From contig JASAMV010001066.1 of NCBI GenBank assembly GCA_030248065.1, positions 1-64,000 on the forward strand: a stretch of DNA of 64,000 nucleotides. Reading direction: 5' to 3'. Below the pieces are notes generated by a model, which was not told the DNA's origin, ran no database searches, and worked only from the letters and a program-made list of their open reading frames with translations. Source of the stretch: Rhynchonema sp. JSB1_4 (lineage: Eukaryota; Nematoda; Chromadorea; Monhysterida; Xyalidae). Both the position numbers and the translations under genes were made by a program. This document shows, one piece after another, positions 8,379 through 63,780 of the stretch; within the stretch, counting starts at the first letter, position 1; each line of letters starts with the position of its first letter.

Positions 8379-11300
8379 ATGGAGGACGCATTCGATAGTG
8401 CCAAGAAGGCCTTATTCAAGGCGGGCGAAAAGGCACTGGCCAAAGCTGGAAACATTATGATGGATGAACTTACTGATGTTGAATGTCTGTTGTCCTACAC
8501 GAAACTGTCGGTGAAGATCGCAGATGCTGACGCAGTGTACGATGCCGGCATGGACTACATACTGCACAATCAGACACAATTCCAGCCGATCACTTTTCAG
8601 GTACCTTTTTGGGCTCACGTGACGGGCATCTGGTGTATTCACTCACAAATCCACCCAATATCGCTTGCTGGCGCAAGCATAACCCCCGAAATGACCATTT
8701 TTTACGGTTTCAACACCGATTTTGCTCGATTTTCCTCTTAACAAATTGACCTTTTTTGAACAACCCCCCCTGGGTATCCGAGATTTTTCATTTTGGCTAT
8801 CCGGTATCCGAAAATTTTGGATTTTGGGTAACCGGTATCCTGACTTTTTGATTTCCCAACGACACCACTGGCGACCTCTGTTCGAAAGTTAGGGGAGAAA
8901 AATAAAAGACCCCCTAAACTGACCCCCAGTGAAGAAATGGAGCCCCCTTCTCACCCCACTTGCTTTGCCAAACCACCAACCGTTTCAACCACTATATTCC
9001 GCTCTTCCGAGTTGGTTCCATTTTTGGTTGTCCTTTCGCTTCGCTTCGTCGCTTCTTCTATTTTCGCCTTTCGTTTCACCGTTGCTCGATGTTTTCGTTT
9101 TGTATCAGTCAAACCGGCACCCCTGTTCATCTTTTTTCTCGACATTATTGTAGCGTGAATCTGAAATATATGGTTTGAAAGCGGAATAGGCGGGCCGGAA
9201 CAGGCTAGCCGGCCCAAAAAATAGTTAGTAGAACTTAGCGCCAGCCCGGGCGGGGTCGAAAAAGGGCGCGCGCGCCGTTTTCATGCTTAGGCTTCGTTTA
9301 GGCTTTAGCGTAGGCTTTTACTGAATTCAACGAGGTTTAAACATGCAATCAACTCGCTGCTGTTTCTCCCAAAAACAGGGCCAACAAGAGAAAAAGAAAC
9401 CACGTGTAAAGAAACACACGCGCGCGCGCGCCAACAACAGCCAATCAGCAGCCGACTCCGTCCCCTTTTGCGCGGGAAATGTCGGCCATTTTCTCACGCA
9501 ACTTTGTGGCGGGTTTTCTCGCGATAGAAGCGATGTTTCAAAAATCGGGCTCTGTCTAGACCTACACCACGACTAGGCGAGTTCATTGATATGTAACACG
9601 CCCGATTTCATGCAGTTTCCTGGGAGGAGTTAACTTAAAACAAAACTGCACCATTTTTTGGGAACGCGGACACCCCTCTTTCTCGGGTGTCTGGAAAACC
9701 ACTTTCTGCTGCACCGATCGGGCTGATTTTTTCAGCGTTTTGTGTCGGCGGGTATACGACATTATCGCAATAATAAAATTGGCAAAAGCCCAACACACGC
9801 GCTCACGCCAGCACCCCCGATTTTAACACTACAGGTATAGCAAAATTTTCGATAATCTGACCTGCTGATGTTTCATTCTGCGTTGCGAATTTTTTTCCCC
9901 ACACAAACACTATTGAATACGTGAGCTATCTTGTGAATATGTCGCCAATAAGCTAATGCCAGGATGTCTTCTTTGTTTTGCTGTTGCCTAATTCCGGTGC
10001 TATACTCACGTATAGACAAGGATTAACCAGACAATTTTTGGTTTGTTTTTTGTTGGGGTAAACTTGACTTCGGTTTGACCCAATTAGGTAACGATAGCGA
10101 GGGTGGACTGTACGCCCAAACAGTGTGGTGGCCAGGAGATCGCGGAGGTCTGCTCATACAGTCTGCCAGTCAAGTACATGTTACGTCACGTCATGTCAGC
10201 AATTTCAGGATTATGTGTTGTGCCTGTGCGTCTTGTGCGCCCGTACTCATCTCGAATAAAGTCGGTGCTCTAGCAAGTATACTATTGTCATAAAGGCAGT
10301 CTACGGGAGGTTGTCACTCAGCCCCCGAATACCGTAACCCACCGCAAGCGAGATCGTTGCGACACCCATGCTGATCGCTGCTTATCGACACGTGTATTAG
10401 CGGCAGCAAGCTGGAAATTGTCATCATGCGCGTCGATCACCAAAACTTGGAAATGTTGGTTGGTGTTGGCGCTAACACGCAAAACATAAATAAAAACCAA
10501 AATGGTCTCGACACGATCCTTGCAGATCAAAATTACGGTGGGTTACGGTATTCGGGGGCTGAGTGACAACCTCCCGTAGACTGCCTTTACCATAGTCCAT
10601 CTTTCATTGTCCACTTGTTGGCAACCATGTATACCTATGTATTTTTGGTGTAAATATGGCATTTTTATCAACACAGTCAACAACTGTGTCATACGCAGCG
10701 TTGTTTATACCAGTTGTTGACTGCAATGCCAAAAATGCCATTTATGCCATTTATTTTTATGCACTATCAACAAGTGTCCTATACGCAGCGTGATTTATAC
10801 CACTTGTTGACTACTGCCAAAAATGCCATTTATGCCAAAAATGCCATATATGGCATTTATGGCAATCATCAACAAGTGTCCACACACGCATCTTCGGGAC
10901 CCGACATGTTTGGTCACTGTATAGAAAAATCACTAAATGGAGTGTTTACCACGTGCTTACCTTCAAGTAGGGGACCAAAGCACGTATCGTTCAAAAGTAT
11001 TCCCTAAAAGAGGTGCGCTACAGCGGCGCAGCTCTCAACGTGCTCCATCCGCAGATCCGCGACGAATACGGTGGCAAGCGCGTGGTGCTGGATGCAGACT
11101 TGGTCGCCGGTGTGGGTGTGGTCGTGAAGAACAGGCACAAAGACGAAATCATGCGCATTGCGATGCCGCAAAAGTCGGAGAGTGTGTTGTGCAAGATACA
11201 ACATTCGAGTGGCGCTACGATTTATAAGGTGACCGGGCGTGCCTGAGCGAAAGTTGAGTCTAGAAGTAGTACTCAGCGGCCGCACTGTGGCACATAAACG

Positions 11301-13333
11301 GGCGCACAAAATTATAGGCGATCGGCCTATGTACATATGTGATCGGTCTGATCTTGGTCGGGATACGGAAAGAAGAGCGCGTTAATAAAGGCAGTTACAG
11401 TATTTTCTCCTTCAACGTTGTACTTTAATATTTTTTCAGCTGAAAAAGTATTTTTGTAATCGCTATGCTTCGCATAGGAGCATTGATTTTCTCATCTCGA
11501 AAGATTAAAAAATATTACAAAATGGAGGGTGCGCGCTTTGTACTTAAGGCGGACGTGGTTGAACGCTTTTTTCAGCTGAAAAAAAGATGAAAAAATATTA
11601 CAAAACCGAAAACGACTTTTCGATTTTTTTGCATTTTATGCATGTTTTTTAAACTTAAATTGATGTTTCAATTGCAACGTGGCTGGTGTAAAGTAAGCCA
11701 TGAAACAAGAGTGGGTGTCCCAAAAAAATTCGGACGCACGAATGTGTAAGTTCTGGGAAATAAAACGACCTAAACATGATCAAAAACAACGTGGTGGTCC
11801 GACGCTGTTTTAAATTCGATCTGACCGGTCAAGTTTTACTGCTTTGTGACTTTCAGTGGTTTAAAAACTTGATTGGCCACTTGATTTGTTGAGTGTTATT
11901 TATGATTATAACGTTATGCTCGTTGAAATATTGTGAATGTTATGATCCACGTGATCACGGCGAATTGGATCACGATTCAGGACAGAGAGATTTCTACCCT
12001 AGGTTTTTGTGCATGATATGCGACCCACTTGTGTTTTTGATCAAGTTTAGGTCGTTTTATTTCCCAGAACTTACACATTCATGCGTCCGAATTTTTTTGG
12101 GACACCCACTCTTGTTTCATGACTTACTTTACACCGGTCTTGTTGCAATTGAAACATCAATTTAAGTTTAAAAAAACATGCATAAAATGCGAAAAATTGA
12201 AAAGTCATTCTCGGTTTTGTAATATTTTTCATCTTTTTTCAGCTGAAAAAAGCGTTCAACCACGTCCGCCTTAAGTACCAAGCGCGTACCCTCCATTTTG
12301 TAATATTTTTTAATCTTTCGAGATGAGAAAATCAATGCTCCTATGCGAAGCATAGCGATTACAAAAATATTTTTTCAGCTGAAAAAATATTAAAGTACAA
12401 CGTTGAAGGAGAAAATACTGTACCTACTGTATGTATTATTGTCATTAGGCCTACGCTCAGGCTTTTGATTAGACCTACGCTTCCCTCAGCATTAAAGGTG
12501 GAGTTATACTCGTTCGTCGCGAACACAACGAACACGACGAACAAATTCTATTTTTGAGCCATTTGAGCAGGATGAACCAAATCGATTTTCAAAGTGTTAA
12601 TGCAGGGCGCAGTAAAGAAATGCACATAACAAATGTTTCAATAACTGCACACAGCTCACTGCAAATCGCGACGAACGAGTATATGTAACTTCATTTAAGT
12701 GGGGACTGCCCTTCGAAAACTAAGCTGCTTTGACCCCGCTGTTTTATCCGTGACGCCTTGGCCACGTGACTTGTGCATTTTAAAGTGCACATCGAGATTA
12801 TTGACGGTCGTCACCGATTCCGCACCAACCCAAAAGAAGTTGTTTATTAGCTTGCGTTTGGTATGTATTTGATACCGCTGTTTTGAGACTGAGCACATTC
12901 GAAGCCCAAAAAACATACATAGATCGAAACGGCCACCAATTTGATATCCACCGATCCGCACAATACATAATCTGATCACACACGCAATAATGAAACATCA
13001 CAGGTGTCAGTGCCAGACAGCACCGGTCGTATTCGCGTTGCGAAGACGACGGCAGGCAGCAGCACCGCGAGCTCGTACGCCCAATTCGATCAATTCAACA
13101 TTTGGTACATGCGCGTGCCTGTCTGGCTCAAGATGGCATTCGACGCGCGCGGATGGCTGGGCGAGCGGAAGCGTGTCAATATTGGTTCGTTACTGGGTGG
13201 TCGCGAAGAACCTTTTCAGTTGGGCTATGGCCTGGTCACATGGGGCTTCGTTGATTTTGTGCGGATGCGGAGCGCAATGGTATTCGCTAATTTCCCCGCA
13301 CCCGTCAGCGGAAAGGTCGTGCCACCACCGTGA
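8379..13333 (+). CDS. Unrecognised three-exon gene (about 255 aa)
   Basis: Three exons join in phase 0: 8379-8600 (ATG to ACTTTTCAG|GTACCT), 11013-11228 (AAAAGAG|GTGCGC to TATAAG|GTGACC) and 13004-13333 (CATCACAG|GTGTCA to TGA). The product would be 74+72+109 residues. The N-terminus (MEDAFDSAKKALFKAGEKAL) is an Ala/Lys-rich amphipathic helix. The middle exon is rich in Val and Asp with a beta-like pattern (RVVLDADLVAGVGVVV). The last exon has a hydrophobic stretch and ends in SGKVVPPP. I do not recognise the family and assign no function. The exon joins are supported by phase and by amino-acid composition. A decamer TGAAACATCA lies immediately before the last acceptor. Introns are 2.4 and 1.8 kb and hold transposons. 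Confidence 0.6.
9283..9320. repeat. TTAGGC-like island
   Basis: Three TTAGGC or GTAGGC units within about 40 bp, inside intron 1 of the 8379 gene. Just upstream, at 9180-9280, is a GC-rich patch containing CGCGCGCG. Confidence 0.45.
10293..10587. mobile_element. 295 bp inverted-repeat element
   Basis: Ends AAGGCAGTCTACGGGAGGTT and exact complement, flanked by TA on both sides. The arms match for about 50 bp, through ACTCAGCCCCCGAATACCG. It is non-coding and inserted in intron 1 of the 8379 gene. Only one copy is seen in the window. Confidence 0.85.
10660..10885. repeat. Imperfect tandem repeat of about 90 bp units
   Basis: Two and a half copies of a unit containing CAACAAGTGTC, ATACGCAGCG, TTTATACCA, TTGTTGACT and GCCAAAAATGCCATTTATGCC-type words (10677-10755, 10768-10850, partial to 10885). 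It is in intron 1 of the 8379 gene, directly after the 295 bp element. Confidence 0.65.
11398..12420. mobile_element. 1.02 kb fold-back transposon with ~395 bp terminal repeats
   Basis: Starts CAGTATTTTCTCCTTCAACG and ends in its complement, with TA on both sides. The two arms are nearly identical (a few substitutions) over about 395 bp, leaving a unique centre of about 220 bp (11800-12020). CAGT ends with TA duplication fit Tc1/mariner-like elements, but there is no transposase frame, so I call it a long-arm non-autonomous element. It sits in intron 2 of the 8379 gene. Each arm contains one copy of TGATGTTTCA (11661-11670 and complement 12150-12159). Confidence 0.9.
12443..12482. repeat. TTAGGC-like island
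   Basis: Degenerate TTAGGCCTACGC and AGGCTTTTGATTAGACCTAC units just outside the 1.02 kb fold-back element. Confidence 0.4.
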
Positions 13334-13509: not shown

Positions 13510-13683
13510 ATGCCCAAATTACGAACGGTCCGCAGCAACGCGATGGTGGTGAAATTCGCGCCCAATTCGGATGACCAGTGTAGAGCGATCACACTGTCGT
13601 TGGGCATCATACAACTGCTCAAAGAGGGATACCATGAACTGCACAATTTGTTGTTGATGTCGCTGCAAGAAGACGCTGTTTGA
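13510..13683 (+). CDS. Coding-like island, 57 codons, unknown
   Basis: An open frame from ATG to TGA whose composition looks like real protein (MPKLRTVRSNAMVVKFAPNS near the start, LLKEGYHELHNLLL near the end). It is preceded by GAGAATTTTCAG|GC, a fair acceptor, so it could be the last exon of a transcript or a fragment of an old gene. The word GACCAGTGTAGA occurs at 13574 and again at the stop codon. A similar reading (GIFHELHKQR) recurs in one frame near 14066, which suggests a decayed duplicate. It is not assigned to the gene upstream, because that gene ends in a stop at 13333. Confidence 0.3.
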   Translation: MPKLRTVRSNAMVVKFAPNSDDQCRAITLSLGIIQLLKEGYHELHNLLLMSLQEDAV

Positions 13684-26100: not shown

Positions 26101-28818
26101 AGTTCGTCGCACGACTTGAGGCCTTACAAAACTTTTGAAAATATTGAACACTGCATAAGATTTAGTCACAAGTAGTTTTTACGGGGTTGTTTGTTTCGTC
26201 ATAGGCGTCGCTGTGACTGTGAATGTTATCTGAAGGCTGAACCAGCTCCCCGAAGAATACAAAAAAATTCTCAAGATTTTAATCAGATCAATCTCAATTT
26301 CATGATTGCCCTCATAGATTATGGTCAGATCAGGTCAAGAAAAATAATATGGCAAATTCTCAGTCCATTTTGCAACCCGGAATATGGACCCTTATTCTTT
26401 TTGCTGCTGGATATCTTGCTGCTGCAGCAAAGGCCAAAAACAATAATGTTTGTTTGCGCACGCTTATATCTTGTGATATCCTGTATCCGAGAAGAAAATC
26501 ACGCATAGGCACGATTTTGACCTTGTCTGGCTGTGGTCGGTAACAAGGCCACAATCATGCTGGCTATATATTTTCGCTTTTCGAGGTCCGCCAACATCTT
26601 TCTACATGCATGTTGTTTACTCATCTCTAGTGATCTTCTTTATTTGATCCTTTTCTTCCAAATAACCTGTCTGTGTGTTTTCCACAACAAATAAGGAAAT
26701 GCAGATAATGATTGGTCACTTTCGTGATTTCTCCCTCATTTTTTCTTCATTCGTGAATTTGCGCTCTCCTATTTTCCTGAGGTCAATCAAGCGCTTGGTC
26801 ACATCCCATACCTGTGTGTGGCAAGCCCCCACACACAAAAGCTGGTGATTCGTTTTAAATCAAGAAAGTCTATGGGACGTCTGTGAGATTTGGTGATCAT
26901 TACGACTTCTTTATTAGTTCATTGGGGCAGAGACCTTTGCAACGTGTGCGAGCAACCATGATGAGCTCACAGTGCACCCCACTTTCGGCTGTGTGTCGAT
27001 TTTGATGTTTCATCAGTTCTGACTACAATGGGTCGTGCAACCCACATATTGCTTTTTTTATCAATTGAAGTCTCAATTTTAACTCGTGGCTCTGCTCTCT
27101 GTTATCAGTACGCCCCTCCTATATGGCTCGGTTGCATCACTGATTCAAATTCAAACCTGTTCGCAAAAAAATCGGCTGGTCCATATGAAAAAAGTATGCA
27201 TGCTTCTCATCATTTCGTGTATATAAATGGCCCAAACGTCTGTGATTGATTTACATACAGACGCATCCCACGCAATAACGATGTGACTGAGCGCACCCAA
27301 GTGGGACATGATTCGGAATTTGTTATATTTTGAGACAAAACGCGTTTCCAGAGACGCAATAATTTCTCGGAGCGACAAACCCCGTGCGTGACACACGCAG
27401 GTGTGTGTTTAGGACACGCGCTGCCTTATTTTACTATAAAGTCGATTTGTCAATTGTCTAAAAGTCAAAAGATGGTAAACATCGTTTCAAATATAACATA
27501 AAGTGTGCGTCTGTAGAGTGTGTTCGATTGATGTTATCGTCGTCTATAAATGAGTGGTCAAGTGTTCAAGTCAAAAAGATTGAGAGCCATACCTGAACCT
27601 GACGCGTTTCTGACAGCGTTTTCGGGTCAAAGACTCAAAATATTCTCCAAGGTCCAGGTGAGCATAAGTAAGCAGTAAGAAAGAACCTAAGTTTGTACTT
27701 GCACCTTGTATGCCTTTGAGCTGTTCCCTGAAGACTTCTCTTGTTTGTTGAAAAGTAACAAAATGACGGTCTTATATCGTGCGCAAACCAGCGCCAAGTT
27801 GTGTAGTTTATGGTAATTTAGCGCTGAATCACTACGTGCGCGCATCTGAAAGTGTTCGCACCTCGTAAAACGACTCATAGAAAATAGCCTTTCAAAATGG
27901 CTGCATTTGTCATTCATGTGGAAGCACCTTTTTTGTAAATTGTGAAGTTTATAAAATGACATGTGGCTGCAAGCACAACTTTCAACAACACGCCGCGCAA
28001 AATGTATATCGGCTTGGCAGACAGCAGCTGGAATATTTTCGCTCATTCGGTTTTTCACTTGTGAAACTGGCGGCCATTTTTTATTTTCGAATGTTTGGTT
28101 TATGTCAGTGCACACACGCACACACCACTAAGTAAAACATGAACATAGCAGCAGGTCTACATGCCTACCTTTTGTAAACCATGTTCCTAGTATGTAAACG
28201 TAATGTCTGTTGCTGACGTTTTTTTTGTAAAACCGCTTTTGATACTACATGTTATTTTCAACAGTCGGTACCTCAGGTATGTACAGTATATTGACTTTCA
28301 TGTTAAAAAACATAACTTTTTTAGCAACACATCACATGCTGGTCTGGTATTGGTAGAAAGTTGAAATTTTTTAACCTTGTTTATGTTGCGTGTTATCAAA
28401 TCACAAGGCCACGATGTTACGTCTACAACAAACCGTTTTCAATTCTTTTGATATTTGCGCAAATTTTACAAAATATACGCTAGCATTATTTGTGGCGACC
28501 TTTTCCCAAAATATCAGCACGCTTCTGTTGACATTTTATCGGCCCAATTGTAATTGAAGGTCGGCGGGCTAAATCTTATGATCTATGTTGGCATCATTTC
28601 CTGCTACTATATAAATTCACAGAATCTTCCTATTCAGCAGAACAAAATCAAGATCCATAAAAATACCATCACGAAGACAACAGCGACAGAGTGGGGGGCC
28701 AGTGGGGCCGACAACTAACTACTATGAGGAGACCGAAATTATCAGAACTTATGAAAATATAGAAGAATCTACATATATCTAAATCCAAATTAATCGACAA
28801 CCAATCAATCAATCAATA
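17171..28818. other. 11.6 kb without a supported gene
   Basis: No exon with good splice signals or recognisable protein. The longest frames (for example 24911-25468 on the minus strand, 185 codons, and 24915-25286 on the plus strand) overlap on opposite strands and show no family signature. Short (AATAAT)n and CATACATA runs occur near 26060 and 23020. The decamer TGATGTTTCA occurs once, at 27003. Regulatory content cannot be judged from sequence alone. Confidence 0.4.
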
Positions 28819-31800
28819 ATGCCGGTGAATGAGCCCCACGCCATGGTCCCACCCACAGGTGCCCCGGACCTGCCCAGTCCTGCAGTGCCCGACGTAACGC
28901 GAGCCCGTTATGGGCACTGTGATACCCCATTCACAATGGACGACTATGACTTGCCCATATTGACACTGTGTGGCGTGCTATTTGTGGCTGGAATTATGTA
29001 CTGCTTCCTGGGTTGGTCGAAATTGTTGACATTGGGTATTGCCGTTTGGAATTGTTGATGTTCGATTGTTCGTTCCCTGTCAAACTTGGTGATCACTCTT
29101 TTTGTGATCTGTTTCGGCACATTGCAGAAACACGGCTGAACTCAATTTTCATTCGGCTCTATTATGCCGGTTCATAGTCTTTATGCCGAACCGAATCGGG
29201 TTCAACTATAATTAATGTGATACGCTCACTGTAAGCCCAAAAAGTCAAGAAAAAATTTAAATTTAAGAAAAATTTAATCACGACTTCTTTCTTTCAGGTT
29301 ACCGTCTATTCAAAGCAGTCATGTTCGCGACGGGCGTGTTGTTCGCGTCTGTGGTCGTCTACGTTGTGTGCACCAGTGAACAGGTATACCTTTGAAGGGC
29401 GTGTCTGACGTTCTTAGAAAACCGTACGGTTAATAAATTTTTGACATTTAATCGACACAACAGTTTGGCTTCCACAAATACATGTACATCACTGATTATA
29501 CAGTTCGATAAGTTGTACATTGTCGATAAGGAAACAAAAAAGTCCCGTGACAGCCAGGCGCAATCACCAAGTTTAACTTGTACCCACCCAACCCCAATAA
29601 ATCGATCACTTGCAGGTCCTGCCCCACCAACTCGGCAACGCAGCCGTATCCCTCGGCGCCGGCGTTCTATTCGGTCTAATCACCATGCTTGTCGAATACG
29701 TGGGACTGTTCCTGACCGGTTTCCTCGCTGGTCTGCATCTGGGCGTTGTTGTGCTTGTCGTCGCCAACTACACCACGCATCTGCACTCGATATGGATCAC
29801 CATAGGTGTTCTATTTATGTGTGGCCTCACCAACGCGCTGATGACACTGAGGTGGTCGAGGTTGGTGCCTGAAGAACGGGCTAACGGCACTGTCGTCAAC
29901 TCATATCGTCAATTTCCATATCAATTTTTTTCTCTCTCTTATTCAGGGCTGCTTGAGTTGACAACGATAGTTGACCACTTGAGTTGACGACTGTACCATT
30001 AGCCAGTATATGTTTACTGGCTGTGAGCGATTTTATAGCTTTTGCGATTCACATCCGCAAAGCCATGTGAGACATCAGCGCATCGCAATGCCACTGATGT
30101 TTCACAGGGCCGTGGCGAACTTTGTCATGGCGTATCAGGTTGAATATGATCGTGGGCCTGACAATCTGATTCATTTTGACATGGTTGATAATCTGCTCGG
30201 TGCCTGAGAGATGTGTAAATTTGACCAGCATAAAGGTTTTTCTATTCCAAGCTTGGAACCAACTTTCTTACCTGGTTCTACAAAAAAGAACAATAAGGTA
30301 TTTCAAGCCAATAAATCAATTCGTGATACTCACGACCAACTGGACCCTGATGTCCCCAGCAAAAGGGCACCGCTCGGCCTACATAAGTATTGATTTTGTG
30401 TAGGTGTTCTTAACATTTGATGAACGAGAAACTCCAGCCGGGTTCACAACGCATATGCGCGTTTGAGCCTCAACCTGGCTATGCTTCAACACTAAAGGCA
30501 AACTACGCCAACACGAGCCCAATTTCGGAGGGACGTGCGTGCAAAAGGAATAGAAAGAGAAAATTCTCATGCACCACGTTGTATTCTACAACGTGTGACA
30601 TTTCCCAGATCAGCAGCCATGTATGAATGTTTCACAAATCTGCCACCTCCGAAATCGGGCTCGTGTTGGCGTAGGGTGTTACTACATATATATATGTACA
30701 TGATCACACGCGCAAACGCGCGTATGCATCGTGAAGCCCTCGTAACATAATGTTTCACGCCCATGCCTAAACACACAGATCCATGCTGATCACCGGCACA
30801 TCATTGATCGGTTCGGCCATGGTCATGGTCGCACTCGACTACATCACGCAACGTTTCGCCGACCTCTACTGGCTCTACGACATCATGCACATGAAACATC
30901 CCCCGTTGGAGGCTGTGTGCTGGTATGGCTGGCTGCTGATGGCCATGTGGCCCGTTGCGTTCATGACCGGGCTGGTTGTGCAATTCAGACTTACCGGCGA
31001 CCGGCGGACACTCAGGAAATCAGGTTGGCGAGCGCGGTATTCAGTTTGCTTGTATTTGCTCATGTCAGATGGTTTTGTCAGTCAGAAATTTCGGTCAGTC
31101 ATATTAAAAACTAATTGACACAGACTGAGAGAACAGCGAAAAACAGTAGTGTGTCCAATTCCTAGTTAGCCTAAGCCTTAGCCAATTCCTGCTAAGCCTA
31201 AACGTTAGGCTCAGTTTACGTGGGTCTTTACAGGCTCCAGGCGCCTTCATACACTTCGGGTTCAGGCGTCAATTAGATAAAAGAGCAGGATGGTATCTTA
31301 GAATGAAGAACTGAAAATTTTGACTCACCTTTCTGACTACATACTTGAGAGCGCTAAATTTGACTGACAAAAAACCAAGCTGACAAAAATAACCGACACA
31401 CCAATCACCTTCAAGGCTCACCATCGTCATCTCGCGCGGGCGAGTCCCCGCACCTCCGCGAAGTCCGATCAACGCATGCACAATCATCGCAACAACAACA
31501 ACATCCGCCTCGACACAAACGAACTGCACACGCCATATTGAAGGCACCGCCGCATCACAAGGCGCAGGCTGTGATCACGAGCACTACTAGTCCCATACAA
31601 GGCACATCGCCCCTACAATCGCCGTACAGGAAAAAATCGTTCCGGTCGTTGTACAAGGCTAGACAGAAACATGGAGATGTTATTTGTCAGGTACAGAAGT
31701 GGGGGATAGCTTTGCGAGGATATACTGTACAATACTCCGACAATACATTTGGGGGAAACTTTTCAAACGCGTTGCCTGATCCGCAAAGCGCATTATGCGT

Positions 31801-32525: not shown

Positions 32526-32601
32526 TGAAACATCAAATGGGATCATACAATTTCGTGCCACGATCACGCTCAGGCATTCGTGGTATATTGGCCGATTATG
32601 G

Positions 32602-37700: not shown

Positions 37701-37935
37701 GTTTGGAGTGGGCAACTGTGTTGTTGTTGATGTTTCATTATCTCGACTCGGCAGCGTGCTCACTGGTATGGCTCGATAGTCTGGATGGGCTTCAGTTCCT
37801 AAATTAACCACGTACAAATGAGTTTGATTATTCGGGCTGAACACCGTAGCTTCATGTGGAATCGGGATTGGTGGCGGTTGATTTGGACTGTCTGGTCGAA
37901 ATATGGAAGTCTGTTTAGGGACCGGCACGGGAGGA

Positions 37936-37974
<39 letters not shown>

Positions 37975-38275
37975 GGTTGTTGCTGTTGCAGTGGTTGGGG
38001 TTCGGGCAGCATTTCCACCAACGAAGATGTGGCAGGTGTGCTGCTGCTGCTGCTCAACTGGTAGACGTTGAAGCCCGGCCTGAAGATCACGTGATCGCGC
38101 AATCTTTTATGTCCGAACTTGCTGCGTACCATTCGCAGTCGATTGAATTTTGGTCCGACGCTGCGTCGACGTTGCGTGATCGTCATACGTTCCAGTTTGA
38201 ATGAATAGTCCTCGGACTGACGGTGATGCTGGCTGCTGCCGGCTGATGTTTCAGTCGTTGAACTGCTGGTTGACC
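34785..38275 (-). CDS. Large Pro/Thr-rich protein with five VVNVGT..PDYR repeats
   Basis: One uninterrupted frame. Reading from ATG 38186 it gives 1133 residues, but the frame stays open upstream to a CATGTTTAG|GG acceptor at 38275 with the same Ser/Thr-rich composition, so the true N-terminus is probably in an unseen exon. Counting from 38186: basic N-terminal segment 1-40; NVYQLSSSSSTPATSS; poly-Gln 67-83; five diverged copies of a unit [YF]-VVNVGT-[DE]-xx-PDYR-[AT]-x-PVR at about 122-142, 175-206, 250-281, 305-335 and 384-412, often preceded by an FRPD-type box; Thr-rich spacer about 530-590; a second NVYQLTSS; three AGGAYPS[PT]G copies; basic C-terminus. No enzyme signature and no transmembrane segment is visible. 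The composition suggests an extracellular or cuticle/mucin-like protein, which is inference. Family unknown to me. Confidence 0.72.
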
Positions 38276-38600
38276 CTAAACATGAGCAGCTTCTGTTTTT
38301 TTGGCTGTTTTAGTTTGCAACCGCCAGAAACCGAAAACGCTTCAGGGACCAACTTTGTAGATTGAGTGAAACGAACATATCTCAAACGATGAGAATGCAC
38401 TGGTGTCTTGCGGACGTGGTTTGCACACAGTCAATCACCTTTCTTTGCAATGCACGCCCACAAGACACCAATGCACTTGCATCGAAAACCTCAACCCCAA
38501 AACCGGTCCGGGTTTGGCCTTTCGGGCTTGGAATATGGCAAACTGAAGGGCTACTATGTAAACCGCATTGAACTGACCTGCTTCCACAACGACGACCATC

Positions 38601-39708: not shown

Positions 39709-42700
39709 ATGAATCCCAAACACGTCACATCAACGGCGTCACGACTCCAGCCGATTTCAGTGCACGAATTATTCAGAGGTTTCCGCTTGTCTGGAGCCAG
39801 TCAGGGCCTACGACAAGCCTTGAAAAGCCTCTCAAGAGTCTGCACAGCAGCGAAACGACTGTTTTGGTGGACTTTCATCTTGCTTGTGCTCAGAAAGATT
39901 TGGAAAGCTCATCAGGCATGCTCAAACGTTCGAACTTGCTGGCATACGTTTGCGCCGGAAACGTTTGCCGACTCCGATCATTTCCGAGCTCTGGTTGAAA
40001 CATTAACGAGCAACAACACACGTCGGCCGCCGGCGATTTTGATGCTGAATAGACATGCACTGTCGATGACCTATAATTGGTACGCTGGATGTTTGTGACC
40101 CAGAGTAACCGCCCGTCTGTGGAAACAGAGCGAAACAGAAACACGCTGCATAAATGGCGTGTTTCCTCTGATGTTTTCGTTTCTTGCGGTGGGGTAGCGA
40201 CACCGCAAACGGCAGAACCGAGTTCATGAACTGAACCTTGCTGCGGTCGGAATGGCATCGTGGAGATCCAAAAAACAGCTGCAGAAAATGACCGCGCATC
40301 ACCGGAAACAGGCGGCTTTTATTCACATCAGGCATTGTTAATTAACATATTTGTAAATGCGGATTACGGTTGAAGCTATACTGACTATCGGCATGACACT
40401 TTGCGTACTTGTCGGCGTTGCCTTGCCCACGCAGGGTAGAGGGCACTGTCGCCAAAATGGAAGGAAGACAATTTCTCTGCCTTATGTATTTCATTCCGAC
40501 CACTTCTGCCCATTAGTTTCGACGACGTTTTATGTTTACCCAACGTGAGACCAACAAGATATCAGGCCGATAGTCAGAAAATCCTACCGTAATTTACGTT
40601 TACAAACAAATGTGTAAACGCAGCAACTCCAACCGTAGTAACTCCTAATGTAACAACGTTCAGGTTGTGCAACACAGCGCAACTGCCGGGTGTACATGAA
40701 CGAGTGTGGATGGTAACCTTGGACGAGACGGCCAGGAACGAGCTCGCGTTCAGATGGCCGCGAATAAGACAGTTCTACTGGCACAGTCCTTGCATACAGG
40801 TGAGCTGACATGATCCATTCCGCCGCTTTTCAGGCCCGGCCGATTGAGTCCTAGCAAGTTTGAGCTACGTTACCAGGCTCAGGCTCATAGGCTCCAACTG
40901 GGCCGGAACCCTTAAAACGGGACTGAACCGTCGCATAATGCGGCTGCACTACTCGTTCTGTTTTTCTATTCCGATGGCATGAGATAAAAAATAACTTTGT
41001 TTGCTTTTCAAAAGAATAATTTTGTTTACTTTTAAAAAAATTTGTTTACTGTTAGAAAATTATTTTGTTTACTTTCAAAGAGAACTAATTTTTACACATT
41101 ATTTCCATCAGGATCGTTTTATGTACGGTGATGCCACCTACCATGCCTTTTTCGCGTTTCGTGCAAACTTCGCCGCTGCGCTGGCAGACGCTGGTGAGCT
41201 ACCGGTGAAATTTGATTAAGCCCCACTGGAATTGGAGAATTGGAAATCTGTTTTGAGACTTTTAAACAAAACATTTGTCCCAAATAACCCTCCAGGAGCT
41301 CAATCGAAGTTCTCCGGTATATCATTTTGTTTTTTTTTCATTTGTCACGTACGATCCATCGTCTAGTAATCACGCACAAAATAAATGTATTATACATACG
41401 CAAACGCACCAGATTATCGTTTGGAAGAAAAAAAATCAATTTTAAATACGTGAATATACGCGGCAGGCATTTCATTTTGGATGATGCAACAAGATACTTT
41501 CTGGCGCGAAAGTCTGTTCGATTTGAATTTTGACGACGACAGGGATTTTGACATTTTGTTCGATCGAATTGGTGCAACACCGACCAGTGAGCGAGCTGAC
41601 TGGATTAACGGTTGGCTGATGTTTCAGAGGAGAAAAGGCACTGCTGGTGTTTGTAACGTGTTCGGGCGGAATCGGCTAATGTTTCACGGCAAGAATTCAT
41701 TTCTTTGGAAACCAATTCACGTGTGCCACACCCGAGCAAGCCATGTACATTACGAGTATGTAATAGATCCACTCCCGATTCCAGGCCAGTGCTCCAGAAA
41801 GGTACATATAATGCATACCTCTTGGTTGTCATGGGCTGAATTCCCGAACCCGTGGAAACACACTTTGAACTTCTGACCGAACTAGCGGCGAACCAGGTCA
41901 TCGTCAGTGCAAATGCACCAGATGGAAAGTGATACATAGCCTGAAGACACCGCAGGTTTCACTTTTGTCAAATTTTGATGTTGTGTATCACGGCCAATGG
42001 TACAGTCGTCAACTCAAGCAGCCCTAAATTAGAGCGCGAGAAATATTGCACATGGAAGTGGACGACAGGAGTCGACCATCTGAGTCGACGACAATACCAT
42101 AAGCCTGTATATAACAGGTGCGCATTTCTTTGTGCGTGGCAACGCGCGCTCGGCCACATTGTTCAAACGTGTTGCGACCGGCTTGTATTGGTGGTACGGA
42201 CCTGATGTGGGTCTGATGAACTGGGCATGCGCGCAGCGCAATACGACAGCGTGCAAACAGATGCCACACAGGTTGGTGTACAGTTTTTTTGGATGGAAGA
42301 CGCGCCTTGTGATATATAGATTACAGTATATGGTTGATTTCGGAAGTTATTGTTTTGCTGATTAGAAACGACATTGGACGAGTGATTGGTATAATTGGGC
42401 CGAATTCTCGAAAGCCAATTGCGCGCAAGCGTAAACGAGAATTTATGTATACTAGATGTACATATATACGATCACAGCCCCAGATCAATGTTGTTCCTGG
42501 CTGTTCGCTTTTGACCTTGGTTATTTAGCGATTTATCCTCTGATTTTGACCGACGTAAAAGCTCCATGAGCTGGAGGCGTTGAAAAAACACCAGTCGACA
42601 AGATGTACATGTATGTAAGAACGGTCACGTGAAATGCCCGTTCATACTTGCATTGACATGTCTAACAATGACCACTTGCCCAGGTGAATATTTACTCCAA

Positions 42701-43724
42701 TTACATAGATCACCAAGTCTGATGTCGTAAAAAGTTTTCTGCACTATCACAATCGGACTCACTTTACATCTCTGATGTTTCACATAATATCCAGGTACGT
42801 AAACTGTTGGGAGTGGCTAACGGAGGGCAATCGTTCGGAGCCTCCCTATCTGATGCAGCTGGACTGCGAGACGGACAGCAGCAGCGGCAAATTAGAGGGA
42901 ATGAAGAAATTCGGATTGTATTTCCTGAACGAGCAAGGCGTCAGCGATGATGCGGCTACATGTGCGAAACCGGAGATATTCGCACCCGTGCATCAGCAAA
43001 ATGATCCTCTCTCAAACAAACAGTTGCAAAACTGCAATCAAACAGCTGTGCGACTCGCCAGACGGGCCGCCAAGTCAGGTGCGTCTGCTGTATTTGTTTA
43101 TTATCAAACTTGGTGATAGCGGCACCAGTAAATCTAGATATCCTTACGTAAGTATATGGATTGAAGTTGCACACATGTGCGTACTATTTTAGGTCTAATG
43201 TTTCTGCGAAAAAATAGGCAGCAAATGCTCATTTTACGGCCGGCTTGCGTGCTTTTTCATCTCTCGCATTGAATGCTATGATGACCGAACGTTCATGGTC
43301 TTATCGCCACAGAATGAAATGAGCCGGGATGGGCGTTTATTAGAGAGTGGACCTTTATCGAGAATAAGCATCTTTTTTGTTTTTCAGCGTGAATGATCCC
43401 TGTTGCGTTTATTGGGAATCGGCGTTTATTTCAGTTGGGGGGTGTTCACTATAGGAAAAATGCGGCTTCTTTATGCGCGAGAATGAGGAACACAGGCCTG
43501 AGGACAGACTTCACCCAAAGTTGCAGCTGGCACTAAGTACTGTGGGTTTTTGCATCCTTCCCATTTCAGGCAGCATCAATCACAATTTCAAGCTGTCCTG
43601 GTCGCGTGCCCACTTCAAAATGTATTGGCAAATGGCCGATTACTTAATTTCGCTGCCCTGGATCGGTCCCGTGGTCAACCGCTTTATGGTGCTCATGGGA
43701 ATGTACTTGATGATCACTTTGTGA
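39709..43724 (+). CDS. Type II membrane nucleotide-diphospho-sugar transferase-like protein (about 441 aa)
   Basis: Seven exons join in phase: 39709-40079, 40664-40799, 41112-41193, 41467-41610, 42118-42271, 42795-43078, 43570-43724. The protein has a short cytoplasmic part, a hydrophobic segment near residues 51-61 (LFWWTFILLVL), then a lumenal domain with ILMLNRHALSMTYNWLCNT, LPGVHERVWMVTLDETA, YGDATYHAFFAFRA, GISFWMMQQDTFWRESLFDL, ADWINGAHFFVRGN and CWEWLTE..PPYLMQLDCET. This order of motifs is what I recall for the nematode-rich nucleotide-diphospho-sugar transferase family (PF03407-like); I could not run a search. A Golgi glycosyltransferase role is inferred; donor and acceptor sugars are unknown. 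AATAAA lies at 43757-43762. Two donors are GTTGG. The start at 39709 is the weakest part. Confidence 0.75.
40833..40920. repeat. TTCAGGCCCGGCCGATT / TAGGCTC repeat island
   Basis: Begins TTCAGGCCCGGCCGATTGAG, shared with about 3679 and partly with 55412, followed by CAGGCTCAGGCTCATAGGCT units. It lies in an intron of the glycosyltransferase-like gene. Confidence 0.5.
40988..41092. repeat. Imperfect tandem repeat, about 25 bp units
   Basis: Four units of the form AATTTTGTTTACTTTYAAAA in the intron just before the exon at 41112. This is probably simple-sequence slippage. Confidence 0.55.
41998..42105. mobile_element. GTCGTCAACTC short element in a glycosyltransferase intron
   Basis: Starts ATGGTACAGTCGTCAACTCA and ends GAGTCGACGACAATACCATA, so the ends are inverted repeats of about 20 bp. 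The internal word AGCAGCCCTAAATTAGAGCG is shared with the other copies. Confidence 0.65.
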
Positions 43725-47272: not shown

Positions 47273-47303
47273 TGTCAACCAACGAACGAACACACCGGCC
47301 GCC

Positions 47304-47441
47304 ATGCAGGCAAATTCGATCGGCCACATAATACGAAACGGACACCACCACGAGCCCTATTGTAATCACAATCGCTATCACAATTACAACAACGGCGCGG
47401 CTGTTTCGCGAATCCGGGTTCGGCAACTATGGTGCTGGTAA
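47304..47441 (+). CDS. His/Asn/Tyr-rich open frame overlapping the membrane-protein frame
   Basis: ATG in a good context (GCCGCCATGC), 45 codons ending TAA (IIRNGHHHEPYCNHNRYHNY within it). It begins 31 bases after a TACAATTTCAG acceptor and overlaps the next frame (ATG 47429) by 13 bases in another frame. It is either the true N-terminus of that protein, displaced by a frameshift or by splicing, or an upstream open frame that limits translation of the main one. Confidence 0.35.
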   Translation: MQANSIGHIIRNGHHHEPYCNHNRYHNYNNGAAVSRIRVRQLWCW

Positions 47442-47830
47442 TTCTGGCCGGACTGTGCGCCCTGCTGTTGTTGTTCATGTGGATTGCACAACGTTACTAC
47501 GATATTATCTGTCGAGCACATGACCTGGTTAGGGTCGCCAGTCGGACCAATCACAATTGCGAGGATCTGCCGCCGAATTATAATGAATACTGCGTGCAGC
47601 ATCAGCCAGCTGGACACAAGTCAACGACGGCCGTAATGCACAATGCGCACATCGTAAGGCAACAACAGAACAAACCGTTCAACTATGGCCATTCAAACAT
47701 TACTGACAATACCGTAACCAACACGAAACTTGAAACATTACTCAGCGCAGATTGTAGCGTTCAGCCATTGTTGTTGAATGAAACATCACCGAATAAAGCG
47801 AACATTGCTCTGACCGATCTTCATTCTTGA
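47429..47830 (+). CDS. Single-pass membrane protein with PPxY motif (133 aa)
   Basis: ATG to TGA, no intron. Residues 1-19 form a strong transmembrane segment (MVLVILAGLCALLLLFMWIA) followed directly by RYYDIICRAHDL. Next comes a polar tail with EDLPPNYNEY, a PPxY motif of the kind bound by WW domains of Nedd4-type ubiquitin ligases, and then a Gln/Asn/Thr-rich region. There is no cleavable signal-peptide pattern, so a type III or N-terminally extended protein is likely. An upstream frame (47304-47441) overlaps the start and may be part of it. TGAAACATCA occurs inside the coding region (47779-47788). I do not recognise the family. Confidence 0.55.
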   Translation: MVLVILAGLCALLLLFMWIAQRYYDIICRAHDLVRVASRTNHNCEDLPPNYNEYCVQHQPAGHKSTTAVMHNAHIVRQQQNKPFNYGHSNITDNTVTNTKLETLLSADCSVQPLLLNETSPNKANIALTDLHS

Positions 47831-50255: not shown

Positions 50256-58200
<7,945 letters not shown>

Positions 58201-58745: not shown

Positions 58746-61700
58746 TTATTCTCTGTCTCTGTCAATCTTTTCTCTCACTATATCGCTGTGTGCAAACGCA
58801 CCAACCCCCGCCATCTCCATCAAACTTCTGTCCGGATTTTCGTCCCATCTGCCTGGTAACGGAACCTGCAAATTTGTAATGCCAGACGTGTATCGATTTA
58901 TAGGCGAAGAACTTTTGATCGGAACGATGTGAAGTAGCCGTCCGATCGCTGATAAATATTTCAATTTACAACCTCCACAGCTCACCTTCGATCTATGTTC
59001 TGCTTGGCGTTGTTCCCAGCGTTTGTGCTGCTGTTGCATGGCCAGGGCAGTTGGGGGCCCGCAACCCCACACCTGAAACATCACACAATCAGCAACAGTG
59101 GCTGACAATAAGACCACAACAAATTTTTTGGTCACTCTTTCAGAGGCCTCCTGCCCTTTGGTTTGGGTATGAGAAATTTTTCGAGAAAATTTACCGAAAT
59201 TTGGGCCGAAGTTCGGAACTTTACGATTTCTCAACGACGCCACTGCCAATAATAGTAAACAATTACCGTACCTCGAGTGCATCTACATTCGACAGATCTG
59301 GCAATATGCTGATCAGCGGTTGACTGCGTTCCGATTTGACCGTAATACCTGAAACATTTTCACACTGAAAAGGCAGTTCACGATGAAGTATTTTTGAAAC
59401 ACCCGTCATACAAGCGTGTGACGGACAAAATAGCGGCCACTGAAAGAGATGCGTAATTGGGGTGGAGAGTCATAGGTATGGGCTTAACTCCAAGTCTAAG
59501 ACTGAACCCATGCCAAAATACTGCATAAACTTAAATAAACAAACAGCGGTCGCTGTATTTTCCACTACTGTTCCATCCGTAACCCCATACAAACAAATAC
59601 CTGTGGCCGATCGGCCGTTCATGTTCATGCAAACGGTGACGTTTTCGTGTCTCGCACAGTCGGGCAACAACGTGACGCACAAACAGTCGACGCCGCCAAA
59701 TGGGACGCTCGACTCTCTATAAGTCAGAAGTTGTTTGACGTTAATTCGCGGCATGATTACTTGCTCGGGGAGCTGATGTGAAACTGCGAAAATTATTTTT
59801 GGAGTTATTGTGGCAACCAGCGAAGAATAGGTGAGCGAAAGTCAGCTTCACAGTCAGCTTTACCCAAACGGGCAAAAAACGGAACGGGCCGTATCAACCT
59901 TGCTTGCATAGACTTGGCATGGATTTGGGCTAATTTGGTTGACTTGTATTTGGTGACAGGGTCGCGCGTCAATTTCGGCCAGCGTAAGTGTTCCCTGATC
60001 TGCATCAAATCAACAACTTTTACGCTGGTCTGAGTGCGTCTTATCTATCATAAAATGCAACTCAACCAAAATTTGTCCACGTCCATGCCAAGTCTATGCC
60101 AGCAAAGTAGATACGGCCCATGAATGACCGAATTATTGATCACCTCCAGGACTGATCAATTGCTACAGCACACAATGAATCATCAACCAAATGCACCAGC
60201 GTGACGGTAGGCGCTTTGTATGCCAACACGTGCGTTTCGAATCTGAAAATGCACGCAGTTTTTGCGTTGGACAAAGATTGTACTACAATTTCAATGACAC
60301 CGACAAGTAACATGACTAATTTTTGCTCGTTGACACGTTAAGTGCAAGTAGAATTTTCTCTCGGTCAAATTCTACCCAAGGTTCTGCGCAAAAAAATTGA
60401 AAATTTTGAAAAACCAAACCAAGCTTACCATTTCACAATCCCCCTAAAAAATACAGATCTTATGCGCCAGGCGTTGTTTGTTTCTCAAAGAAACCTTGTC
60501 TAAAAGTTCATTCGTTTCATTTGCACAGCACATTTTTGTCAATGCACAGTTTTGTCGCAGCACCAGATAACAGCTAATTAACTGGCCGCGTGATAAAAAC
60601 GTTTTTTTCTCGAAAAACAGTGAAAAAACCGAAACAGAGCCGACCCTCGGCCTCGACCGAAGGTTCCCCCCAAAACACGGATTTTTTTCGGAATTAGGGA
60701 CCGACTTCTTTCAAAACAGGAATTCATCATGCTAAATGTCGCCGTAATTACTTGTCGTGGGCATAGCAGAACGTAATAACCGTTGTTAAACACACGCGCT
60801 GTGTCAGTAACACACAAAGTATGCGCCCAAAATGCTTGTATTGCGTTTCCCTATGCTTTATACACCACTGTTCTTTCGGTTTTTTTTCAAAAATAAAAAG
60901 AACCGGTTGTTCGGCCGGCAACAACAATATATAGCAAATAGTAAGACATGTCACCTGTTCGTACTGAGCCCATGCTGTGCACTCTGGTAGAGCAGCGTCC
61001 AACAAGCAGGAACAGCAACTTGTTTGTCATTATCATCCGAGCTGGTACTGGTTGACTTGCATTCAGTCAGATACGATGTGGGTATGGCGCGTTCAACGAA
61101 CCACAATTGCATCGGGGTTAGGATGTCGGACACGGCCAATGGCCCCTGTTATCGATTATACAAGCTTGTCGAGTGCAACATCAGAGATGCAGCATCAGCA
61201 TGTACAAGCGAAATGACCAGAATACGACCACGGTTGGTGCAGTAAAAGACGGAACAAGATACTTTTCTGCTTTGAATATTTTGCGATTGCGCTGGAGCGC
61301 TAAGTTCAATCAATGCAAAAGTTGTCTTCAACTCCGACCGCTACATCTGACGGTGGTCGATGACTGTTGAGCAACTTTTACACCGGTAAATGGGTGTTCC
61401 AATTCCAAAGATATCGCAAAATAGTCCAAAACAATATTTATCTTCTCTACGCCGTGCACCGGCCTTCAAACTTGATCCAGCCAGCCATGTGCATCTTTGG
61501 ATCGATATGCAACTGCAACAATTTGTTGCGTTGCTTTTTGTGGCACACTGAGCCAGGAAGGTCGCTAGTCCTTCTTTTACCTGAACTTCAAAGTCTTCGC
61601 CCGTTAACCGAAGTCGAATCAAATTTGAAACATCATCACAGCATCGCGGACAACACGCATTCAACGCACGCCAGCACGGCTCGTCGCGGTCAGACGTCTG

Positions 61701-62427: not shown

Positions 62428-63051
62428 GATCTTGATTGCAAAAATAATCTGGTCCCCAGGTTTCGCTCCGTGCTGTTCAGTTTCTTCACATAATTATCAT
62501 TTGTGAGCGGGCATGGGCAGGGCGGGCGCAATCGCAGACTCAATCCTACCCCAGTTTTCTTTTGCTTTGATTTGAAAAAGGCCGGCTGCAATGCTGATTG
62601 TTGACTGCGATTATTTGTTTCTTTCGATGTTCCATTGATTTGTTCATTGCATCAGTTTCAATCTGGGAGGGATTGGATTGAGTTGATGGATTGTTTTGAT
62701 GGATCCTGACTGAGCACAACTGCAACAATAACATGAACAACGATCGCGTTTATTTGCACTGACACGCAAATGGTTTTGAACCAGTGTTATTGCGGCATGA
62801 AAAATAACGTGATAGATATTACTGAGTCTGAAGTTTTATTAATTTGGCCAGAAACGCACCCACTTATTAATGCTAAACGCGGAACATCAGCTACTTCGTG
62901 CGCCTAAAGTTAGCTCAGGAGAGCGAGCACTCAGTCAGTACAGAAATGTCCTGAGAGCGTCGAACAACCGAGTGACCACAGACAAGTGACAAAAACCCTG
63001 AAAACAAACAAATAACTGAAAACGGGATAAAAAAATGTTTCCGTCAAATGT
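62428..63051. other. Intergenic; probable promoter of the TLDc gene
   Basis: About 620 bases between the first coding exon of the TLDc-like gene and the end of the leucine-rich-repeat gene, both on the minus strand. No TATA box or other element is convincing. Confidence 0.35.
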
Positions 63052-63780
63052 TTACGCGAACTGATGATAATTTTCAATGGTGATTTCGGTGCCGAACCGA
63101 ACGACCGTCAACGAACGACCAACAAAACGCAAAAGACAGCCTTCAATTGTCGACCTGGCCATTTCGTGTCGCCAACGTCGCTGTGAAACATCAGTGGGCG
63201 CGATGCTGTGCCCATTCTTCACGCTGTAATCAATCGTGATCGGACTGTGACTGCTGTCAGTACGAGTTGTCAGTCGTTGTTTGTCAGTTAGTCCGATCAC
63301 AAACCCCAACATCTGTCTGATTGACAATCGTGCATGACAATCCATGTAGAGTGTGTTCAGACGTGGACATGTGTCAATCAATTGAAACATCAGCGCGTTC
63401 ACTTGCGACTGTGCAATGTTGGGTGATTGTAGACACAGTTGTAGCACTTGCAGTTCGGGCAGCGCTAGTTTGAATGTGGCAGGCAATGTTTGGATGCGTG
63501 CATGCGCGTGTACGTATAGTTGGCGCAGCCAAGGCAGTTGGACGCAGACCTTGGCCAGATGGGTGAGTTGACTTTGCGTGGCGCATTTCAACGACAAACG
63601 ACGCAAATTGGTGAACAGCTGGTAGCGAGCGTTGAACGCACGACCGAACTCTACGTCACGCCGATTGGCTTGTTCGAATCCGACAACACGCGAGCGCACC
63701 ACATCTGTAGTTGGAATAGATGGATGGATTGAGCATGCATAAAATTTGGGCATTGATTCCGTGTCGTGGTCACGTGACAT
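63052..63780 (-). CDS. Leucine-rich-repeat protein (F-box/LRR-like), possibly partial
   Basis: Open frame of 242 codons from ATG 63780 to TGA. Residues about 55-155 form leucine-rich repeats: FTNLRRLSLKCATQSQL, LPWLRQLYVHAHARIQTLP, LPELQVLQLCLQS and CPRLNTLYMDCHARLSI. The pattern (short strand followed by a helix) resembles the LRR part of F-box or RNI-like proteins. No F-box is present in the window; it could lie in an upstream exon beyond 63780, towards or past the window end. The ATG is the first in frame after an upstream stop, but the N-terminus is uncertain. The decamer TGATGTTTCA occurs twice on the coding strand, encoding LMFQ and TDVSQ. Confidence 0.6.
   Translation of the reverse strand: MSRDHDTESMPKFYACSIHPSIPTTDVVRSRVVGFEQANRRDVEFGRAFNARYQLFTNLRRLSLKCATQSQLTHLAKVCVQLPWLRQLYVHAHARIQTLPATFKLALPELQVLQLCLQSPNIAQSQVNALMFQLIDTCPRLNTLYMDCHARLSIRQMLGFVIGLTDKQRLTTRTDSSHSPITIDYSVKNGHSIAPTDVSQRRWRHEMARSTIEGCLLRFVGRSLTVVRFGTEITIENYHQFA

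What the first reader, a model, noticed from the sequence alone, without database searches (positions are those of the whole stretch)
9866..63392. A decamer, TGATGTTTCA, is about 100-fold over-represented and hugs exons
Reading both strands I find 20 exact copies of TGATGTTTCA or TGAAACATCA, starting at 9866, 11661, 12150, 12991, 27003, 30095, 32526, 37159, 37728, 38244, 41617, 42773, 47779, 52661, 55599, 56658, 59074, 61626, 63184 and 63383, plus many 9/10 matches (for example 9531, 30748, 41677, 58198). With about 57% A+T I expect about 0.2. Fifteen lie inside or within 60 bp of predicted exons, although exons fill only a small part of the window; the 17-27 kb gene-poor stretch has none until 27003. 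Several sit at acceptors (42773, 55599, 59074), one directly after a stop codon (32526), several inside coding sequence. Both orientations relative to the gene occur (about 10 sense, 6 antisense), which argues against a pure splicing signal and for a DNA-level or small-RNA-level mark. The GTTTCA core recalls the Ruby motif CTGTTTCA upstream of nematode piRNAs; that link is speculation.
Basis: partly seen in the sequence, partly recalled or inferred. Interest (0 to 1): 0.88.

Follow-up and report, generated by a model that had tools for sequence, protein, structure and literature searches.

The report
Genome-wide ten-base motif in a nematode
A ten-letter DNA word occurs tens of thousands of times in this roundworm genome with few misspelt versions, so it looks like a working binding site, possibly a promoter tag for small defence RNAs, though that was not proven.

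Summary
In detail: all 20 copies are where stated. Genome-wide there are 37,556 exact copies in 203.9 Mb, against 345 of the reversed word and 1,233-1,514 expected from a third-order model. Flanks are unrelated, so one transposon is not the source. In held DNA, density is about three times higher in unique than in repeated sequence. Copies lie in introns and inside coding frames, in both orientations; "hugs exons" holds only weakly.

New: decayed copies are scarce. One-base variants at core positions 3 and 7 are near a third-order background and well below neutral expectation on either yardstick. Copies are kept exact by selection or drive, or are recent.

The genome is a nematode with a probable PIWI-clade gene. 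The best reading is a Ruby/SNAPc-like promoter element of dispersed, gene-embedded piRNA loci, as in Pristionchus (PMC6436959). It is unproven: the canonical Ruby octamer is not clearly enriched, the 21U start signal is weak, and coding copies are unexpected. A structural DNA-binding protein is the main rival. Confidence 0.4.

The parts
9866..9875 (+). exact motif copy
11661..11670 (+). exact motif copy in an arm of an inverted repeat
12150..12159 (-). exact motif copy in the other arm of the same inverted repeat (flanks 91% alike)
12991..13000 (-). exact motif copy; open frame not tested against Pfam
27003..27012 (+). exact motif copy
30095..30104 (+). exact motif copy between two open stretches that match the TM7S3_TM198 domain (29601-29984 and 30771-31115)
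32526..32535 (-). exact motif copy
37159..37168 (+). exact motif copy inside the 1174-codon open frame 34788-38309 (-), antisense, peptide VKHH
37728..37737 (+). exact motif copy inside the same open frame, antisense, peptide NETS
38244..38253 (+). exact motif copy in the open frame upstream of its first ATG (38186), antisense, peptide TETS
41617..41626 (+). exact motif copy in coding sequence (inside a Nucleotid_trans domain match, 33.5 bits), sense, peptide LMFQ
42773..42782 (+). exact motif copy; acceptor or open frame, not settled
47779..47788 (-). exact motif copy in the open frame 47366-47827 (+, no Pfam match), antisense, peptide NETS
52661..52670 (+). exact motif copy in an STK32 intron, 14 nt after the donor
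   Evidence: junction placed by eye
55599..55608 (+). exact motif copy in an STK32 intron, 6 nt before its end
   Evidence: junction placed by eye
56658..56667 (+). exact motif copy
59074..59083 (-). exact motif copy; acceptor or open frame, not settled
61626..61635 (-). exact motif copy in an open frame without Pfam match, sense, peptide DDVS
63184..63193 (-). exact motif copy in the LRR-like open frame 63055-63822 (-), sense, peptide TDVS
   Evidence: (LRR_4 18.1 bits, below its cut-off of 27)
63383..63392 (-). exact motif copy in the same LRR-like open frame, sense, peptide LMFQ
50257..55800 (+). STK32 (YANK) kinase gene, exons placed by eye, used to place two motif copies

Best explanation
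The decamer is the core of a sequence-specific DNA-binding site, (c/g)T[G>A]ATGTT[T>C]CA, present at tens of thousands of places in a nematode genome. Shown here: the excess, the tight consensus, unrelated flanks, lower density in repeats, the scarcity of decayed copies, and presence in introns and coding frames on both strands. Inferred: the most likely binder is a SNAPc/SNPC-4-type complex, as at the nematode Ruby motif, recruiting RNA polymerase II to make short capped precursors of PIWI-bound (21U-like) RNAs about 42 nt downstream. The copies would be a dispersed, gene-embedded ('Pristionchus-type') piRNA gene set with a species-specific Ruby motif (ATGTTTCA in place of CTGTTTCA). In this reading genes host the sites because active chromatin favours their expression.
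For: Genome-wide 18,829 + 18,727 copies vs 172 + 173 of the reversed word. EM motif of about 16 bits, about 131 sites in 264 kb, no strong signal more than about 2 bp outside it in 137 sites. Scarce relics: position 3 variants 5,064 vs 4,545-5,106 expected, position 7 variants 1,948 vs 2,011-2,191, where neutral steady-state decay would add about 4,000 per position (my calculation); in 364 kb, one-mismatch words at the six strict core positions 38 vs 36.4 expected, beside 95 exact copies. Nematode: 57 Col_cuticle_N matches (that the family is nematode-specific is recalled). PIWI: contigs C1663, C4595 and C3368 give 6 of 14 matches of a PIWIL1-like query (38-52% identity) and none of the 24 matches of an AGO2-like query. 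The core GTTTCA is shared with the Ruby octamer (PMC6317315 passages). Pristionchus piRNA loci: 88% in genes, about equal sense and antisense, dispersed (PMC6436959 sections 10, 11); its authors infer GTTTC in the ancestral nematode SNAPc motif (section 9) and find 21U starts 42 nt from the motif (section 30). T at motif position 45 in 39 of 91 exact sites vs a downstream mean of 23.9; position 45 is 42 nt after the octamer start, a match I noticed after seeing the profile, and the passages read do not say from which base the 42 is counted.
Against: CTGTTTCA is not clearly enriched, and the present motif differs from it in the first octamer base and has a TG extension. The T excess is matched at position 56 (40 of 91) and nearly so upstream (max 38); in the relaxed set (179 sites) position 45 has 59, position 56 has 68 and upstream reaches 69; YRNT ending at position 45 is 12 vs a mean of 6.4, while position 36 has 13. 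No low-melting valley; only a weak G+C rise at 41-55 (z 3.6 relaxed, 1.8 exact). Copies occur inside coding sequence, whereas 97% of intragenic Pristionchus piRNA loci are intronic. Individually redundant piRNA loci would not be expected to be kept so exact. The 5' half-motif described for Plectus was not seen. With the reversed words as yardstick (3,003 and 966) the variants would show an excess of 2,061 and 982, so the lack of relics is less complete than the third-order model suggests. The PIWI query also matches the AGO loci (8 of its 14 matches, 38-45%), and nematode-specific WAGO proteins were not used as a control.
Confidence: 0.4

Rival explanations
1. The decamer is the binding site of an abundant structural or regulatory DNA-binding protein (insulator, pairing or chromosome-organising factor, or gene-licensing mark) unrelated to piRNAs, and copies are maintained by selection.
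For: Short tight consensus with random flanks, scarce relics, both strands, introns and coding frames alike, lower density in repeats. Close exact pairs (under 140 bp) are divergent in 6 of 7 cases; with relaxed sites 11 of 27.
Against: No candidate factor was identified; the GTTTCA core and the PIWI-like gene would be coincidence.
Confidence: 0.3
2. Molecular drive: biased gene conversion or transmission favours motif-bearing alleles, so copies spread and are held exact without serving the gene, comparable to bacterial DNA uptake sequences.
For: Same length as the neisserial 10-mer; few one-off variants, permissive positions and core rather than repeated DNA, as described for DUS (PMC2397512 passages).
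Against: No conversion data. One divergent duplicate (L031/L032, flanks 92% alike) lacks the copy. I know of no such drive motif in a nuclear genome (recalled; one paper search, listing only).
Confidence: 0.13
3. RNA-level splicing signal: a branch-point-like T[G/A]AT plus pyrimidine/CAG acceptor sequence.
For: By eye, 13 of 19 inspected copies lie within 25 nt of a splice junction; 6 of the 7 on the acceptor side are sense. Donor-like GTRAG within 30 nt upstream is 6 vs 2.8 expected.
Against: Donor-side copies are 3 sense and 3 antisense, and copies lie inside exons. G right after the motif is rarer than expected (11 of 87 vs about 20), and acceptor-like words downstream are 8 vs 6.1.
Confidence: 0.07
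4. Very recent burst (for example a young insertion process), with copies too young to have decayed.
For: Scarcity of relics alone cannot separate selection from a burst younger than roughly 1-5% divergence, depending on the background used (inference).
Against: Flanks are unique rather than element-like. Duplicates with flanks 86-95% alike (L019/L027 family, window pair) keep the motif intact, though one 92% pair does not. In the Src-like kinase exon of L048 the copy fits the reading frame without visible insertion (by eye, against a recalled Src sequence).
Confidence: 0.06
5. Fragments of one dispersed transposon.
For: A few copies lie in repeats (8 of 92).
Against: No shared flanks beyond about 2 bp; density in repeats is about a third of that in unique DNA.
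Confidence: 0.02

Closest known systems
Ruby motif of nematode type I piRNA genes (CTGTTTCA)
   Same: GTTTCA core; nematode with a probable PIWI gene; thousands of copies; dispersed and in both orientations as in the Pristionchus-type organisation
   Different: First octamer base A instead of C, plus a TG extension; canonical octamer not clearly enriched here; copies in coding sequence; 21U start and YRNT signals weak; more copies than the 25,883 piRNA entries given for C. briggsae (abstract start in the listing)
Nematode SNAPc (PSE) motif of snRNA genes
   Same: Beltran et al. infer GTTTC in the ancestral 3' half, also present in Romanomermis
   Different: The 5' half was not seen; snRNA promoters of this species could not be read
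Neisserial DNA uptake sequence (10-mer)
   Same: Ten bases, large excess, few one-off variants, core DNA
   Different: Bacterial natural transformation has no counterpart here; about 1 per 5.4 kb, against about 2,000 copies occupying 1% of a neisserial genome
Metazoan architectural protein sites (CTCF, nematode pairing-centre motifs; recalled)
   Same: Short, tight, abundant protein-binding consensus
   Different: No matching consensus was recognised and no motif database was searched

Membership tests
Ruby-motif piRNA loci | Host encodes a PIWI-clade Argonaute | tested here: inconclusive
   Leans met; three contigs give 6 of 14 PIWI-query matches and 0 of 24 AGO-query matches; queries recalled from memory, WAGO proteins not tested, no tree.
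Ruby-motif piRNA loci | CTGTTTCA octamer over-represented | tested here: not met
   15,676; third-order expectation 13,531-15,080, reversed word 11,744, which itself exceeds its own expectation of 8,828. A small excess is not excluded.
Ruby-motif piRNA loci | T (YRNT) about 42 nt downstream | tested here: inconclusive
   T at position 45 in 39 of 91, but 40 of 91 at position 56; YRNT 12 vs mean 6.4.
Ruby-motif piRNA loci | High then low melting profile downstream (pausing signature) | tested here: inconclusive
   small G+C rise at 41-55, no valley.
Ruby-motif piRNA loci (Pristionchus-type) | Genic, both orientations | tested here: inconclusive
   Both orientations met: 22 sense, 12 antisense at kinase loci. 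Genic excess modest and threshold-dependent.
Ruby-motif piRNA loci (Pristionchus-type) | Intragenic copies almost only in introns | tested here: not met
   copies inside coding frames, one within a Pfam domain match.
Ruby-motif piRNA loci | 21U RNAs produced; SNPC-4/USTC bound | not testable with these tools
   No RNA or ChIP data.
SNAPc PSE | Motif in the promoter of snRNA genes | not tested
DNA uptake sequence-like drive | Large excess with few one-off variants | tested here: met
   less complete with the reversed words as yardstick.
DNA uptake sequence-like drive | Transformation or conversion bias | not testable with these tools
   No population data.
Splice signal | Sense orientation only, fixed place at acceptor | tested here: not met
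Transposon fragment | Shared flanks beyond the motif | tested here: not met

The most novel reading that the evidence does not exclude
A eukaryotic nuclear genome in which one 10-base word is maintained exact at some 40,000 sites (perhaps 100,000 with variants, extrapolated), including inside coding sequence, by selection or drive unrelated to piRNA promoters: a nuclear counterpart of bacterial uptake or architecture motifs, with a new DNA-binding system behind it.
Probability: 0.3. Interest if true: 0.92.

Novelty: new variant of a known kind. Interest (0 to 1): 0.72.

Why it matters
If it is a Ruby-type element, it would extend motif-driven piRNA genes to a nematode not close to any named one seen here, with a divergent motif and a very large set of sites, and would let the SNAPc-to-piRNA co-option model be tested. 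If it is not, a short word held exact across tens of thousands of sites in an animal genome would point to an unknown DNA-binding or drive system. Either way the motif is easy to test with existing assays.

Tried and rejected
Considered and rejected: transposon origin; chance; pure splice signal. Known RNA genes beside copies: no gathering-score Rfam match in the window, none in L016-L035, one tRNA in L001-L015; L036-L050 were not scanned. Inverted pairing within introns: some divergent pairs, too few to decide. A published description of the string: two literal searches (20 of 48 and 20 of 60 papers listed) and one topical search, listings only, showed nothing relevant. Searches (Enoplea/piRNA; CTGTTTCA/SNPC-4; drive motif) were seen as listings, with passages read afterwards from papers of 80 and 81. 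The library holds open-licence papers only. Species identification by 18S or COX1 was asked for but did not complete. Results against a strong gene association: no correlation of motif count with coding score over 26 blocks (0.11, p 0.60), and a weak one with repeat fraction over 20 stretches (-0.33, p 0.15). The 34788-38186 part of the long open frame found no relative, so its coding nature rests on the open frame alone.

Papers: PMC6436959 outline and abstract, sections 8, 9, 10, 11, 30, part 1 of 2 of section 13, and passages; PMC6317315 listing and passages; PMC9683057 listing and passages; PMC2397512 listing and passages.
Full report
Observation. The 20 exact copies are at the stated coordinates, 12 on the plus and 8 on the minus strand. 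In the whole genome that holds the window (203.9 Mb, 5,747 contigs, window = C666:1-64000) the word occurs 37,556 times, 18,829 forward and 18,727 reverse; the reversed word occurs 345 times. A third-order model from 364 kb of held DNA expects 1,233 (motif sites masked) to 1,514, so the excess is 25- to 30-fold on the stricter null and 109-fold on the reversed-word control. The mean density is one per 5.4 kb.

Motif. Expectation-maximisation over window plus L001-L020 (264 kb) gives (c/g)T[G>A]ATGTT[T>C]CA(c/t), about 16 bits and about 131 sites. TAATGTTTCA occurs 6,526 times against 620 reversed. In 137 sites the flanks show no strong positional signal beyond about 2 bp, and only a minority of copies have a duplicate in the held DNA. 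It is a motif and not a repeat.

Distribution. In held DNA, unique sequence has 84 copies in 283 kb (0.297 per kb) and repeated sequence 8 in 78 kb (0.103 per kb), p = 0.0014, L032 left out as a near-duplicate of L031. Counts in the 20 fetched 10-kb stretches are over-dispersed (1.9, p = 0.009), 6 of 20 having none; 6 of these stretches came from contigs seen in the hit list, and the other 14 hold 25 copies. Thirty loci fetched around kinase matches hold 34 copies in 99.7 kb, 15 of 30 having at least one. A codon-usage score gives 38 of 95 copies in coding-like DNA (29% of bases) and 58 of 95 within 60 bp of it (47%); at stricter thresholds the excess inside coding-like DNA vanishes (16 of 95 vs 14%, 4 of 95 vs 5%), and the count does not correlate with the score over 26 blocks. 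So the tie to genes is modest.

Place in genes. By eye, in 11 stretches near Pfam-matched kinase exons plus the window's STK32 gene (19 copies: 17 of the 34 kinase-locus copies and 2 window copies), 13 lie within 25 nt of a splice junction: 7 on the acceptor side (6 sense) and 6 on the donor side (3 sense, 3 antisense). I chose those stretches for being near exons, so this is a lead and not a rate. Around all sites splice-like words are at most mildly enriched (GTRAG upstream 6 vs 2.8, acceptor-like words downstream 8 vs 6.1). Other copies are inside coding frames: 41617 within a Nucleotid_trans match, 37159 and 37728 in a 1174-codon open frame, 63184 and 63383 in an LRR-like frame (below the Pfam cut-off), 47779 in a 154-codon frame, and L048:1636 in a Src-like kinase exon. 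The peptides are those the word allows without a stop (DVS, MF, ETS, KHH).

Scarce decayed copies. If 37,556 copies were neutral and at steady state, each core position should add about 4,000 one-base variants (37,556/9.33; my calculation, uniform mutation, constant birth). Position 3 variants number 5,064 against 4,545-5,106 expected, and position 7 variants 1,948 against 2,011-2,191. The third-order model is not exact: the reversed control words number 3,003 and 966 where it expects 2,673 and 672. With those reversed words as yardstick the excess would be 2,061 and 982, still below neutral expectation. Locally, variants at the six strict core positions number 38 against 36.4 expected beside 95 exact copies. 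So copies are mostly held exact by selection or drive, or they are younger than roughly 1-5% divergence. Duplicated copies with flanks 86-95% alike kept the motif in the L019/L027 family and the window pair; one L031/L032 pair (flanks 92%) did not, and three others there (99%) did.

Host. Fifty-seven Col_cuticle_N matches mark the genome as a nematode (specificity of the family recalled). Among the 120 listed of 4,076 relatives of the window's STK32 protein, named nematodes reach 49%, an annelid 48%, and unnamed proteins up to 58%, so no close named relative was seen. There are 54 Piwi-domain matches. A PIWIL1-like query finds contigs C1663, C4595 and C3368 (6 of 14 matches, 38-52%, the top score among them); its other 8 matches fall on loci that the AGO2-like query also finds (38-45% there). 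None of the three contigs is among the 24 AGO-query matches, which reach 88%. A PIWI-clade gene is thus probable; WAGO proteins were not tested and no tree was made.

Mechanism. PMC6436959 describes nematode piRNA loci with an upstream GTTTC-type motif derived from the SNAPc site, either clustered or, in Pristionchus, dispersed in genes in both orientations and 97% intronic. The present motif shares GTTTCA, the two-strand placing and the PIWI-like host gene. I therefore rank a species-specific Ruby/SNAPc-type promoter element first (0.4). Against it: CTGTTTCA is not clearly enriched; T at position 45 is present in 39 of 91 sites, but position 56 has 40, and I tied position 45 to the published 42 nt only after seeing the profile; no melting valley is seen; no 5' half-motif is seen; coding copies occur; and per-copy exactness is more than redundant piRNA genes would need. 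A structural or regulatory DNA-binding protein comes second (0.3) and molecular drive third (0.13).

Verdict. A real, strong and unusual genome-wide signal; the scarcity of misspelt copies points to function, drive or a recent origin; the piRNA-promoter reading is the best supported but unproven.

Noticed in passing
window 11393-12425: Large inverted repeat (192-nt arms 98% complementary, 649 nt apart, with a nested 144-nt pair that carries two of the 20 motif copies).
   Followed up: partly
window 51372-51890: A (CA)n microsatellite of about 500 bp inside an STK32 intron.
   Followed up: no
window 10291-10589: Inverted repeat with 57-nt arms 98% complementary, 185 nt apart.
   Followed up: no
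window 34788-38309: 1174-codon open frame rich in Thr/Pro/Gln with a repeated 'VVNVGT..PDYRTLPVR'-like unit; no Pfam match, and its part from the first ATG (34788-38186) found no homologue.
   Followed up: partly
L031:2850, L026:1783, L010:2957, L006:6024, L048:1636, L042:1835: Close exact motif pairs (51-134 bp) are divergent in 6 of 7 cases under 140 bp; with relaxed sites 11 of 27.
   Followed up: partly
G000 contigs C1663, C4595, C3368: Three PIWI-like loci with the same exon layout, possibly paralogues or uncollapsed haplotypes.
   Followed up: no
L013: Stretch that is 91% repeated in the held DNA, with long open frames of a recurring short unit and no motif copy.
   Followed up: no
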